A stretch of DNA of 64,000 nt from Gonium pectorale (Eukaryota; Chlorophyta; Chlorophyceae; Chlamydomonadales; Volvocaceae): NCBI GenBank assembly GCA_001584585.1, contig LSYV01000030.1:1111528-1175527 (forward strand), written 5' to 3'. Below are positions 19,532-32,856 of the stretch, piece after piece. A program made the translations under genes and the position numbers. The notes under the pieces are model-generated. The model was not told the DNA's origin. It made no database searches and saw only the letters and a program-made list of their open reading frames with translations. Numbering within the stretch: the stretch's first letter is position 1; every line of letters begins with the position of its first letter.

Positions 19532-22500
19532 CTACTTATTCTTCTTCTGCCTGCCCCAGCAGATGCTTCCGACGCCGGGGACGTTGCGAACGCAGCCGCT
19601 GCCATCCTCCTCGTTGATATCCACGTAGGCGTAGGGGTTGCGGACGGTGGTCTGTGACGGAGGTCAAAATAGACGGACAGCGGTTATAGGCCATCGTTCT
19701 GACCGGGGTACGATTACGACACGTCGTGCTGGCGTCGATGCACGCTAAGGGAGTCAACGTGCGGCTCACCTTGCCGTCCTTGCTCTCAGCCTTGGTCAGG
19801 GGCGCTTCCACCTTGACGGCCTTGGAGACATCATCGCTCTGCTTCTGGACGTCCACGTTGGCGTATGGGTTACGGACCGTAGTCTGTGGGAAACGGAAGC
19901 AGGGAAGGCAGCCTCTACGATCACACATACCCGGGGGTGCGGTGGTTAAAACACAGGCAAGAGGGGTAGGCCAAGGACCGCACGCTTGCACGCGGAGGGC
20001 TGCAGTGAGATGTGGGCCGCGGCCAGAGTATCGGTACCTCGAGACGGCTTTGACATGTTAAACAGGTTAGGCTTCAGCTCATGCGGATGCAGTGCACAAG
20101 GACCATTGGTTGCTCATGCGCTGTGCGGCCGTGCGCACTTCACGCCACCCTTTCAGATATGTGGCTCACCTTTCCGTCGCCGCTCTCCACCCTGGTCTGT
20201 GCCGCGTCGACTTTCACGGCGGTCTTGGTATCGTCGGCGCTCTGCAGGCTGCGCCGGTGGCCGCCGCCCCAGCAGATGGTGCCCGCGCCGGGGACGTTGC
20301 GCACGCAGGCACTGCAAGCGCAGGGTTGGAACATAGGGCTGCAACCTCTTAGTCGGCCAGGCTGAGCCAACGCCCCTGCCATCTATCTGTACGAAACTAG
20401 AGATTGCTAAGCGTCGATACCGCCGTACGCCGCGTGCGTGACGCCAAGATGGATAGTTGCACATTCAGATTTACTGCGGAACGGTTGTAGGTGGTGGTCG
20501 CCGTACGCACACAGAACACAGAGCTGTGATGGCCGGAATGAAGCAGACCACACTGTCACCAGGCACCTGTCCATCCCCTTGTCGACCTTCACGTTGGCGT
20601 ACGGGTTGCTGATCGTCGTCTGCACGGGTTGGGGGTGCAAGAACAGTCCACGGTGACGCAACGCAGACGCACACGTGAGCGTGGGGCGGGTGTGCCTAGG
20701 AACATGAGTGCGGATCCCACCGGATGCTAGGGGCAAGCGGCATTGCGGCATGGAGGGCGAATGACAGGTCCAGGCAGACGCCTTCCTGAACCTGCGTATA
20801 AGCATGCCTGCTTCATTCGCAACTCCACGGTCTCCACCCTAACGTCCACACCGCGACAGGATCCTGGGCAACGGAGGACCCACCTGGCCGTCCTTGCTGT
20901 CCACTTTGGTCAGGGGCGCCTCCACCTTGACTGTCTTGAAGCCGTCGCTCTCCTTCTCAACGTCCACGTTGGCGTAGGGGTTGCGAACAGTGGTCTGGAT
21001 GGGTGGTGTTTACAAGTTTACATGCTATTTGCCACGTGAAGGGCGGATGCTACAGCATGCCGTACAAGCAGATAACTTTAGATGAAGCACACCTACTGGA
21101 CAGGGCAGGGCGCGGCAGGCCGCACAACCGACGCAAGATTGTGCGGAGTGAGGGCTGCCCACACGGGCCAACCATCAACTTATGCCAGCATACCAGCCAG
21201 CCAACCAACCAACCACCCAACCATGCGTCTATAACTCAGGACGACTGCCTCGAACCCTTTGTGAGGTTCCACAAAGGCACGCGAAGGACAAATGGATCTT
21301 TGACAGGGGAGCACACAGTCCAGTCTTTTACAGGGGAGGGCTACATACGCGACAAGGCGCGCGGCTCACCTTGCCGTCCTTGCTCTCCACTTTGGTCAAG
21401 GGCGCCTCCACCTTGAAACTCTTGAAGCCGTCGTCGCTCTGCTTCTGGACGTCCACGTTGGCGTAGGGGTTGCGAACAGTTGCCTGAACAGACATAGGCA
21501 TGCAGGGTGCATAGAGCCAGCGGGTCAGTAGTGAGCCTCACATGCAAGGGCGGCATTGGCGTCCTAGGCGCCCCACAAATATGCAAGACCATAGCGGGCT
21601 ACAGACGTTCAGGGACCACGATATAAGAGGTCTGGTTCCGCTTGCCAGGCCAATACGCCAAAGGGCGCGGCTGACCTACGCACACTTATGGGTTAGGAAC
21701 CCGCACAAGACCGGACTAGGCGCTGACACGGGCCGGCTGGTGTGTCCAACCGCGAAGCTAGGATCGCGTGTGAACGGTGACGTGCAGCACAGCGCTCACC
21801 TTCCCATCGCCGTTCACCACCTTGGTCTGTGCCCCTTCAACTTTCACGGCGGTCTTGGGCTTGGTATCGTCGGCGCTCTGTAGGCTGCGCCGGTGGCCGC
21901 CGCCCCAGCAGACGGTGGCAGCGCCGGGAACGTTGCTCATGCAGCCGCTGCGAGTAGGCAGTGTAGGGAGAACGGCCGGGTACATAAGTCACGACCCAAA
22001 GGAGGTTCGGCATTGGTCGTTACAGTTACGATATAACACCAACGGAAGGCGCGGAAGGCGACGGCGGTCAGTTCAACGGTTGCCCGTGCATTGACGCTGT
22101 GTTCTTCTTAGACCAACGAGGAGTGTTGGGCGCACAGACGCACTGTGGCACGTCTTGAGGTACGGCGCAATAACGAAACGTGGTTCAAAGGCTCAACTAA
22201 CACGCGCAATGTAACTCCCGAGTTTGCCGCACGTGCTTGCCCAAGCGGCACGCCTTACCTGCCCTTCTCCTTGTCCACATCGACGTTTGCGTACGGGTTG
22301 CTGACGGTCGTCTGCAGTTGTGTCGCCCGAGTACATGCGCACGTCAGTAGCTATCCAGACAAGGGTTAAACCGTACTACGTATGTACGCGTACGGACGCT
22401 GACGGTTGTGGACATCCTGCCGGTCAATAACCAGGCGCACCAACAGCAACCGTGGTAAGGTGGTATATAATGGAATTGGGAAGTACAACGTCGTCATGAC

Positions 22501-30788: not shown

Positions 30789-32856
30789 TTACTTGCCGGT
30801 CTTCTGTCCTCCCCAGCATATAGTTCCGACGCCGGGGACGTTGCTGACGCAGCCGCTGCCGTTCTGGTCGTCCACATCCACGTTGGCGTACGGGTTGCGG
30901 ACAGTCGTCTGCGAGGGTTAGGATCCATTGAAAGGAGACGTTCCAAGCGTTAATGGCGTGCGGGTGACGTGCTAGCAGTCCAGTCGAGACGCTGGTCAGC
31001 AGCACTGGCGGTCGGCGCACATTGCACAAGAACATGCGCACGCAGTGTTGCTCCGGGGTGTAAGCACTGACTGTGTGGTGAAATATGGAGCGAGGCCGAA
31101 ACACTGCTGTGCTTTGCATTGAAGTTGTGCTGGACTTTTGCTGAATGACGTCACGCAGTCTTTGGGGACTTCCAGGTTGCAACTGGCACACCGCTAGGCA
31201 CACCGCATGTGTCCTCACCTGGCCGTCCTTGGTCTCAACCTTGGTGAGGGGCGCCTCCACGTTGACGGTCTTGGAGCCATCACTCTGCTTCTGGACATCC
31301 ACGTTGGCGTAGGGGTTGCGAACAGTGGTCTGGATGGGCGGGGCATTAGGATATGCGGTGAGAATGGGGACTGGCGTTGCGCTAAGGACGGATAGCCTCA
31401 GTGCTGTGTGCGCAATCTCAAGCCCTCAAGCTCACGACAGGCTTGCGGCGGGGGCGGGTAGCGCACTTGGGTAAGTGGTGGAAAAACACGAAACTGCCTG
31501 GACATGAGCAAACAAGAAGCTAAATGCAGGCATGCCTTGGATCCAGAAGGGCGTGCGCACCTGGCCAGCGCCGCTCTCGACCTTGGTCTGCGCCGCATCC
31601 ACGTTGACAGTGGTGGCCTTGGTATCGTCGGCGCTCTGCAGGCTTCGCCGGTGGCCGCCGCCCCAGCAGATGGTCCCGACGCTGGGGATGCCGCTCACAC
31701 AGCCGCTGCGTGCATGCAGCCGAGGGAGCAGGCCACAATATGTAAGGCCAGGTGCTTGTATGACGTGAATTCGATTATGAACTTCCCCAAAAAACCCAAC
31801 AGCTCTCCTTTTCCATAATGGAACGGATTTAACAGGTGTAGATAGTATGTCCCCGCACATACGGTCCGTCGTAACTCTCGGCTTTCTTTGCAGCTTGCTG
31901 CGGACTTCCCCGCGCCCGCGCATGCCTACACGCACGCCTCCTGGTCGCCAGCCCATCACATACCTGCCGTCGCCCTTGTCGACATCAACGTTCGCGTAGC
32001 TGGTGCGGACGTTCGTCTGCGACAGGATGGGCGGAGGGAGGAAGGGGCTCAGGAGCCTCGCCGAACAGACATTGCGTTTGGCCGGGCACAGCCGTGCAAA
32101 CGTACGAGCCTGTGAGCCCCGGTGCTGAGGGGATAGGTGACATGTGGCGTGGCGTGGGCTACTGCGCGGGCTACTGCGCGGGCTACTGCGTGGGCTACTG
32201 CGCGGGCTACTGCGCGATACAGAGTATCTCTTCGTAAGGTCCGACACCGCCATGCCATGCTCTGTCGCCACGTTCACGCGTCAGTCCGTGGCCAGGGCTC
32301 AGACTCAGCGACGTAAGGGCTCGTTCCCCACCCCACCGGAAGTCCCGCTACTGTGACCGCAGCTAGCAAACATCTAGCGCCCGAGCCGCGCCGGGCTACT
32401 GGTGCAGGGTGCACCGCTGGCAATTTCCAGCGGTGCAGGACTGCGCACCTGGTCCTGGGTGTCCCGCACGGTGGTCGTTGGCACCCGTACATCCGTTGCC
32501 TTGAGCTCCCGGGCCGCATCTGTGGTGAGCAAGTGGCAAAGGGATTTGAAGGTCGGTAATCTGGCCGATAGCCCCGATGGCGAAATGTCCGCGCCAACAA
32601 GCGAACCCGCCCGCCGCGTGCGTGGAGTTAGGCGGGCGTTCACTCGGCACATATGCGGGGGCGCCGCTACTGCTTTCATGAGCGGTCCCAACATCGACCA
32701 CTTGCAGGTCGATGCACTGGGTATCAGAGCGGACGCACCCGTCGGAGCCGTGCTGCAGAGGCAGGCCACCAGCGCAGCTGCCAGCAGCAGCGACAGGCCG
32801 CGGAGGGCCCGCTTGCAGCTCTTCACGATGATGGGGTTTAGGCGGCTCGTGGCCAT
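30789..32856 (-). CDS. Modular secreted repeat protein, paralogue C
   Basis: The shortest complete member of the family: 205 residues in six phase-consistent exons. They are 32856-32739 (signal peptide; core LSLLLAAALVACLC), 32519-32449 (AARELKATDVRVPTTTVRD), an L module split between 32016-31964 (NVRTSYANVDVDKGDG) and 31705-31561 (IPSVGTICWGGGHRRSLQSA), an S module at 31329-31219, and the terminal module 30908-30789. The terminal module (NPYANVDVDDQNGSGCVSN then VPGVGTICWGG) is uninterrupted at the point where L modules carry a phase-2 intron. Exon 2 corresponds to two separate exons in B. C may be close to the ancestral layout (signal, linker, L, S, terminal), from which A expanded. It is the 5'-most gene of the tandem array. 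Confidence 0.8.
32152..32216. repeat. 12-bp tandem repeat (gcgcgggctact) x5
   Basis: Five near-exact 12-bp copies in the intron between exons 2 and 3 of paralogue C. The unit is a multiple of three, so the spurious frames on both strands stay open. Confidence 0.85.

What the first reader, a model, noticed from the sequence alone, without database searches (positions are those of the whole stretch)
19532..32856. Tandem family of three secreted proteins built from an unrecognised repeated module
Three minus-strand genes in a row share a signal-peptide exon ending in phase 1, small linker exons, and repeats of two related modules. S (about 37 residues) begins TTVRNPYANVDV and ends EAPLTKVESKDGK. 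L has the same two ends with an inserted C-x10-C loop and GGGHRRSLQSADDTK between them. All three end in a truncated L module. I know no named domain with this sequence. The alternating polar/hydrophobic pattern suggests beta-rich stacking repeats on a secreted adhesin or matrix protein, but that is inference.
Basis: partly seen in the sequence, partly recalled or inferred. Interest (0 to 1): 0.88.

Follow-up and report, generated by a model that had tools for sequence, protein, structure and literature searches.

The report
Secreted multi-unit protein family in Gonium
Three neighbouring genes (and a fourth farther along the same chromosome piece) of the colonial green alga Gonium encode probably secreted proteins made of two or three joined copies of one unfamiliar unit, with a possible cutting site at each join.

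Summary
The window is from Gonium pectorale: spliced gene A equals GPECTOR_29g124 over 205/205 residues and B equals GPECTOR_29g123 over 203/203. Gene C (13 exons, 443 aa) has no near-identical deposited model in two searches. A fourth member, D (GPECTOR_29g130, 346/346 identical to my model), starts about 9.5 kb beyond the window. It suggests a simpler parse: L is not a module but the junction where one unit's two-cysteine cap meets the next unit's R-x-LQS start. A, B and D have two units, C three; the 'truncated L' is the unit's end. S is the beta-patterned body. Every cap-to-start junction (5 of 5) carries [KR]R, preceded by Gly or Gly-Gly-Gly-His; the four starts without a cap lack it. I narrowly favour a secreted proprotein cut at dibasic sites, perhaps with amidated ends, over an uncut matrix protein. 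Neither is shown. The one Pfam pass is a repeat artefact. AlphaFold models were uninformative (pLDDT 33-35). Nothing outside Gonium was found, but two of my three protein searches also missed known members of this family, so restriction to Gonium is untested.

The parts
30789..32856 (-). Gene A (GPECTOR_29g124), 6 exons, 205 aa, two units
   Evidence: identical to deposited protein P0003 over 205/205 aa
32739..32856 (-). A exon 1, signal peptide, phase 0->1
   Evidence: hydropathy
32449..32519 (-). A exon 2, start of unit 1 (DAARELKAT...VPTTTVRDTQDQ), no dibasic
31964..32016 (-). A 53-nt exon (0->2), unit 1
31561..31705 (-). A cap of unit 1 (C-x10-C, CWGGGH) + RR + start of unit 2 (SLQSADDTK...)
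31219..31329 (-). A S exon (37 aa, phase 0-0)
30789..30908 (-). A terminal exon: counterparts of the 53-nt exon and cap in one exon, ends CWGGQKTGK*
25786..29014 (-). Gene B (GPECTOR_29g123), 8 exons reproduce the deposited protein (203/203 aa); second cap broken
28888..29014 (-). B exon 1, signal peptide, phase 0->1
28548..28574 (-). B exon 2 (27 nt, 1-1), unit start GAARDLKSA
27903..27988 (-). B exon 3 (...VPTTTVLDTRAQ)
27488..27540 (-). B 53-nt exon (0->2), unit 1
27146..27281 (-). B cap of unit 1 (CWG) + RRR + start of unit 2 (SLQSTYGSK...)
26858..26968 (-). B S exon, diverged (46% identity to a C copy; dN/dS 0.47-1.65 against the six other S copies)
26614..26665 (-). B counterpart of the 53-nt exon, 52 nt here
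26179..26236 (-). Remnant of B's second cap (GCLNDILGSG...), out of frame with the exon before it, not in the deposited protein
25786..25805 (-). B last exon of the deposited model (GFDGYL*)
19532..24194 (-). Gene C, 13 exons, 443 aa, three units; no near-identical deposited model found in the two searches whose length limits cover 113-775 aa
24089..24194 (-). C exon 1, signal peptide, phase 0->1
23810..23836 (-). C exon 2 (27 nt, 1-1)
23456..23577 (-). C exon 3: unit start (LRSLQSAD...) with no cap before it and no dibasic
23007..23117 (-). C S exon 1
22518..22628 (-). C S exon 2
22259..22311 (-). C 53-nt exon, unit 1
21800..21947 (-). C cap 1 + RR + unit 2 start
21370..21483 (-). C S exon 3 (38 aa)
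20884..20994 (-). C S exon 4
20567..20619 (-). C 53-nt exon, unit 2
20170..20311 (-). C cap 2 + RR + unit 3 start
19770..19883 (-). C S exon 5 (38 aa)
19532..19651 (-). C terminal exon: counterparts of the 53-nt exon and cap in one exon, ends CWGRQKKNK*

Best explanation
A small gene family of Gonium pectorale encoding secreted multi-unit proproteins. One unit is: an R-x-L start (LQS, LKS, LKA or LLQ), a body of beta-patterned repeats (S in A and C, related APG repeats in D), a 53-nt exon encoding a stretch like TTVxNPYANVDVDKxxG, and a two-cysteine cap followed by Gly and basic residues. Genes A, B and D carry two units (B's second cap is broken) and C three. Shown: gene models, unit architecture, homology with D, constraint on S. 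Inferred: after signal-peptide removal, a kexin/furin-type protease cuts at the [KR]R of each junction, releasing disulfide-capped units into the wall or medium. Basic/His trimming would leave a C-terminal Gly that PAM could amidate. The released units would act as wall components or signals.
For: Exon structure and phases are conserved, with exact 53-nt exons in A, B, C (twice) and D (twice). My spliced A, B and D equal deposited proteins over 205/205, 203/203 and 346/346 aa (B's last two exons were placed with the deposited protein in hand). D is a true homologue (BLASTP pairwise E 4e-20 with A, 7e-17 with C). In A, B and D the residues right after the signal-peptide exon are the best or second-best match in the whole mature protein to the junction start RRSLQSAD (shuffle P 0.012, 0.006, 0.0008); C exon 3 is that same start without a cap. 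Dibasic residues sit at 5 of 5 cap-to-start junctions and at 0 of 4 starts lacking a cap (Fisher 0.008, copies not independent). In C only 3 dibasics occur in 408 residues against 9.3 in shuffles (P 0.007), all at or beside a cap end. In A and C the last unit ends within one residue of where internal units would be cut (my count). Cysteines after the first exon lie in caps only, two per intact cap. Gly stands before the basic run, with His between in three, at 5 of 5 junctions (GGGHRR three times, WGRRR, CGKR); a Chlamydomonas precursor is reported to need removal of Arg and His before amidation (PMC6919629, passages). Gonium DNA encodes Cu2_monooxygen, Cu2_monoox_C and P_proprotein domains.
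Against: No peptide or transcript data. Depletion of dibasics holds for C only, not A, B or D (P 0.42, 0.85, 0.92); B and D have other dibasics (NKR in B; KK, KK, KR and KK in D). The shuffle ignores the alternating beta pattern, which itself separates K/R. Three of the five junctions are near-identical copies. Units are about 60-180 residues, long for peptides. Cu2-monooxygenase domains also occur in enzymes other than PAM (recalled). A genome scan for an RRLLQ-coding site did not tie that motif to signal peptides. The features 'ends within one residue' and 'Gly before the basic run' were noticed after the fact.
Confidence: 0.42

Rival explanations
1. Uncut modular structural protein: tandem beta-repeat units with disulfide caps form a secreted matrix or cell-wall protein. 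Cap and start are ordinary domain boundaries and RR is just a surface linker.
For: Signal-like first exon, no strongly hydrophobic stretch or tail after it; V/T/K-rich alternating S modules under purifying constraint; D's APG repeats carry 4 N-x-T sequons; variable unit and S number as in structural repeat proteins; UniRef calls D 'Adhesin domain-containing'.
Against: Does not explain why dibasics sit at capped junctions and not at uncapped starts or why Gly precedes them; no DUF4097 match reproduced; AlphaFold gave no confident fold.
Confidence: 0.4
2. Largely disordered, fast-evolving secreted proteins with a dispensable role, with B already decaying.
For: Mean pLDDT 32.9 and 34.8; B's S copy at dN/dS 0.47-1.65 in 6 of 6 comparisons and a 52-nt exon with an out-of-frame cap.
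Against: dN/dS 0.06-0.55 in 15 of 15 comparisons among the other S copies; cysteine pairs and 53-nt exons conserved to D. Alignments of three sequences are too shallow for pLDDT to argue disorder.
Confidence: 0.13
3. Member of a known domain family: L,D-transpeptidase C-terminal domain (PF17969) or the DUF4097 'adhesin' family.
For: C scores 27.2 bits and a triplicated S module 27.9 bits against PF17969's cut-off of 26.8; UniRef name of D.
Against: No single stretch of C passes; 1 of 10 shuffled triplicated modules also passes some Pfam cut-off, and 9 of 10 hit some family at E<=0.01; six-frame search finds no PF17969 in the genome and its one weak PF13349 match is on another contig; D hits no Pfam family at E<=5.
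Confidence: 0.03

Closest known systems
KEX2-processed repeat proteins (KEPs) of fungi (PMC6339444, passages seen)
   Same: Signal peptide, internal repeats, KR/RR between repeats
   Different: Alga, not fungus; units about 60-180 aa with a cysteine cap; only 1-2 internal sites; cleavage untested; no sequence relationship tested or claimed
Amidated-peptide precursors of Chlamydomonas (Cre03.g204500, Cre12.g487700, Cre17.g722300; PMC6919629, passages seen)
   Same: Precursors with paired basics and Gly before the basic residues; Cre17.g722300 likewise is said to need removal of Arg and His before amidation
   Different: No homology tested; the Cre03.g204500 group is described as having proline-rich regions; in the passages seen none is described as repeats of a capped unit, and intact proteins seemed to be amidated there
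Pherophorins (volvocine wall/ECM glycoproteins; described from recall and PMC4844696 passages)
   Same: Volvocine, secreted, gene family
   Different: No pherophorin match among the Pfam families hit by A, B, C or D at E<=5; no proline-rich rod in the sequences
GPECTOR_29g130 (gene D)
   Same: Same signal exon phase, R-x-LQS start, 53-nt exons, cap, [KR]R junction; 38% identity to A over 162 columns
   Different: APG repeats instead of S; N-glycosylation sequons; cysteine spacing changed; separate 53-nt exon kept in the last unit

Membership tests
KEX2-processed repeat proteins (working definition in PMC6339444) | Signal peptide | tested here: met
   Hydrophobic N-terminal segment, max 12-residue hydropathy 2.75-3.10, in 4 of 4 members; no dedicated predictor was run
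KEX2-processed repeat proteins (working definition in PMC6339444) | Internal repeats | tested here: met
   Two or three units per gene; six S copies 78-95% identical
KEX2-processed repeat proteins (working definition in PMC6339444) | KR/RR between repeats | tested here: met
   5 of 5 junctions
KEX2-processed repeat proteins (working definition in PMC6339444) | Actual cleavage by a kexin-type protease | not testable with these tools
   P_proprotein domain found at 5 places of the genome, nothing on substrates
Amidated-peptide precursors | Gly exposed after cleavage and basic (and His) trimming | tested here: met
   GGGHRR (A, C, C), WGRRR (B), CGKR (D); C-termini TGK (A) and EGK (D) also fit, those of B and C do not
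Amidated-peptide precursors | PAM encoded | tested here: inconclusive
   Cu2_monooxygen and Cu2_monoox_C above cut-off, but not shown to be PAM
Pherophorins | Pherophorin domain | tested here: not met
   No such match listed for A, B, C or D in Pfam at E<=5; that the library holds the model is recalled
DUF4097 (PF13349) adhesin | Pfam match above cut-off | tested here: not met
   that UniRef's name stems from this family is recalled, not tested
Ldt_C (PF17969) | Pfam match by a single stretch, beyond controls | tested here: not met
   0 passing stretches in C, though C and a triplicated S pass the whole-protein cut-off; shuffled controls also pass a cut-off in 1 of 10; 0 genome matches

The most novel reading that the evidence does not exclude
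A family of multi-unit precursors in a colonial volvocine alga that are cut at (G)(H)RR/KR junctions into two or three disulfide-capped, C-terminally amidated secreted proteins: a clustered set of wall or signalling ligands in one of the simplest multicellular organisms.
Probability: 0.2. Interest if true: 0.7.

Novelty: new variant of a known kind. Interest (0 to 1): 0.45.

Why it matters
Gonium is a model for the first steps of colony formation. Its genome paper reports that the pherophorin expansion of Volvox is not present there and suggests that the colony's wall layer may be directed by differential gene expression instead (PMC4844696, passages). An undescribed, probably secreted family, including one intact three-unit gene that seems to be missing from the deposited proteins, is a concrete candidate for wall or signalling chemistry in this organism. 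The junction hypothesis could be tested with mass spectrometry of secreted material.

Tried and rejected
Ldt_C match: rejected as a repeat artefact. DUF4097: not reproduced. Solved structures: for C the best of 3 distinct sequences had E 0.003 (RPL37A, matching residues 5-70); for D the best of 7 had E 0.013 (an antibody). None was taken as meaningful. AlphaFold of A and D from three-row alignments: pLDDT 32.9 and 34.8, so no fold search was run. S as an internal duplication: half 1 against half 2 gives P 0.26, not significant, although each half matches nine repeat stretches of D jointly (P 0.009 and 0.0005); the corresponding stretch of the junction exon does not (P 0.57). One RRLLQ-coding 15-mer as a general leader motif: 18 sites in the genome against 1 for the reversed control, but only 1 of the 17 sites that could be measured has an upstream 12-residue hydropathy above 2 (L041): no support. 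TGTAA polyadenylation signal (recalled as the volvocine signal): first site at base 287 after the stop for A, 852 for C, 846 for D: inconclusive. Viral and prokaryotic contigs: 89 and 65 stretches matched a pattern, none encodes a relative. Intron homology: none at E<=0.01.

Sensitivity of the protein searches: (query C, admitting 244-775 aa) did not return D (346 aa), and (query D, admitting about 190-605 aa) returned D alone, not A (205 aa) or B (203 aa), although all are in that database and A-D match at pairwise E 4e-20. Only, whose alignment held all four sequences, returned A, B and D. Each search scored about 8,000 candidates. So relatives at about 40% identity can be missed, and I ran no positive control for other volvocine species.
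Full report
What is there. On the minus strand between 19532 and 32856 lie three spliced genes. I call them A (30789-32856, 6 exons, 205 aa), B (25786-29014) and C (19532-24194, 13 exons, 443 aa). I placed exon ends at GT/AG borders, so those borders are by construction; the open, in-phase result is not. The signal-peptide exon ends in phase 1 in all three. S exons are 111 or 114 nt, phase 0-0. The pair 'L' is a 53-nt exon (0->2) plus a 136-148-nt exon (2->0).

Organism and deposited models. 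The alignment search returned three proteins at E<=10, all of Gonium pectorale. A equals GPECTOR_29g124 over 205 of 205 residues. B equals GPECTOR_29g123 over 203 of 203 with an 8-exon splice; I had six exons on my own and placed the last two (52 and 20 nt) with the deposited protein in hand. For C no near-identical model turned up in searches that admit 244-775 aa or about 113-359 aa, so it is probably absent from the annotation or modelled very differently. The genome paper says genes were predicted by AUGUSTUS with RNA-seq intron hints (PMC4844696, passages); whether these particular introns had reads I cannot tell.

A fourth member. Searching the own genome with C at E<=10 gave 18 matches: 17 in the cluster and one weak (E 0.047) on the same contig. 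Reading that place gave an 8-exon gene on the other strand (L023:1990-6281, which starts about 9.5 kb beyond the window's end). Its spliced product is identical over 346 of 346 residues to GPECTOR_29g130. It matches A at E 4e-20 and C at E 7e-17 pairwise. It has the same phase-1 signal exon and two exons of exactly 53 nt.

A better parse. With D in hand, the second half of L is recognisable as the start of a unit. Just after the signal-peptide exon A has AARELKATD, B AARDLKSAG, D AARHLQSND. In each of these mature proteins that place is the best or second-best match to the junction RRSLQSAD. C exon 3 is the same start (LRSLQSADASKTAVDVDAAKTKVESGDGK) with no cap in front. So C is: start-S-S-53-cap / start-S-S-53-cap / start-S-53-cap. 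A is start-53-cap / start-S-53-cap. D is start-APG-53-cap / start-APG-53-cap. B is like A with a broken end. The 'truncated L' is the last cap. In A and C the counterparts of the last 53-nt exon and cap lie in one 120-nt exon; D keeps them apart.

Is it real and constrained? The six S copies other than B's are 78-95% identical and have dN/dS of 0.06-0.55 in 15 of 15 comparisons (14 of 15 at or below 0.28), while B's copy gives 0.47-1.65 in 6 of 6. A BLAST among introns and flanks (28 sequences) found only self-matches at E<=0.01, so exons are kept while introns are not. Cysteines after the first exon are only in caps: 4 in A, 2 in B, 6 in C, 4 in D. B's second cap is lost: its exon is 52 nt and the cap remnant at 26179-26236 is out of frame.

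How it may work. Dibasic pairs stand at all five cap-to-start junctions (A 1, B 1, C 2, D 1) and at none of the four starts without a cap (Fisher 0.008, with the copies not independent). In C only 3 dibasics exist in 408 residues against 9.3 in shuffles (P 0.007); A, B and D show no such depletion (P 0.42, 0.85, 0.92). A and C end within one residue of the equivalent cut position (my count). Before the basic run stands Gly (B, D) or Gly-Gly-Gly-His (A, C twice). In Chlamydomonas, a precursor is reported whose product needs removal of Arg and His to become a substrate of the amidating enzyme, and carboxypeptidase B-like enzymes are said to remove C-terminal His (PMC6919629, passages); paired-basic processing machinery of that alga is described in PMC6313938 (passages). 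The Gonium genome encodes the two Cu2-monooxygenase domains and P_proprotein domains, which shows possible machinery, not its use here. I therefore favour a proprotein cut into capped units, at 0.42, over an uncut matrix protein at 0.40: close to a tie. Cutting, amidation and function are inferred.

What it is not. Pfam gives one nominal pass (Ldt_C: 27.2 bits for C with no single stretch passing, 27.9 for a triplicated S, cut-off 26.8). Ten triplicated shuffles of S gave one such pass too, and 9 of 10 hit some family at E<=0.01; the genome has no match to that family. NCBIfam gives nothing better than E 0.5. UniRef's 'adhesin' label on D was not reproduced. Structure predictions are too weak to use, so the beta-rich claim rests on the sequence pattern.

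Lineage. No protein outside Gonium came up that I take as a relative: one search gave one hit at E 0.34 (a protein named HlyD family secretion protein), only D itself at E<=1, only the three Gonium proteins at E<=10; no viral or prokaryotic contig. This is weak evidence. One search missed D and one search missed A and B, all of which are in that database and within the length limits, and each search scored only about 8,000 candidates. Relatives in Chlamydomonas or Volvox at about 40% identity could well have been missed; restriction to Gonium is untested.

Literature. In paper searches for the gene prefix (0 papers), Gonium ECM transcriptomes (21 papers, 20 listed), Gonium wall proteomics (1 paper) and volvocine peptide precursors (523 papers with at least two of five terms, 10 listed) I saw, in listings only, nothing on these genes; passages of the genome paper do not name them.

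Noticed in passing
L023:1990-6281 (+), contig C30, starting about 9.5 kb beyond the window: Fourth family member D (GPECTOR_29g130) with APG repeats carrying four N-x-T sequons; A has one sequon and B and C none.
   Followed up: yes
window 28012-28153 and 32152-32216: Two-copy 70-bp tandem repeat in an intron of B and a 12-bp x 5.4 tandem in an intron of A.
   Followed up: no
window 38412-39377 (-); 55675-56439 and 58518-60290 (+): Conserved neighbours: an ORF with the Brf1 TBP-binding domain and two stretches of a Utp14 gene.
   Followed up: no
window 14709-15417: A run of 709 N; it explains why all six frames look open there in an ORF list.
   Followed up: yes
L023:1-1220 and L024: L023 starts with 1,220 N and L024 holds 3,343 N of 7,701, so further members between the window and D cannot be excluded. 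The contig is 1,261,182 bases here but the longest contig behind the deposited proteins is 1,267,136.
   Followed up: no
(protein searches): A single-sequence search of the protein database can miss family members of about 40% identity from the same genome; the search with an aligned set found them.
   Followed up: partly
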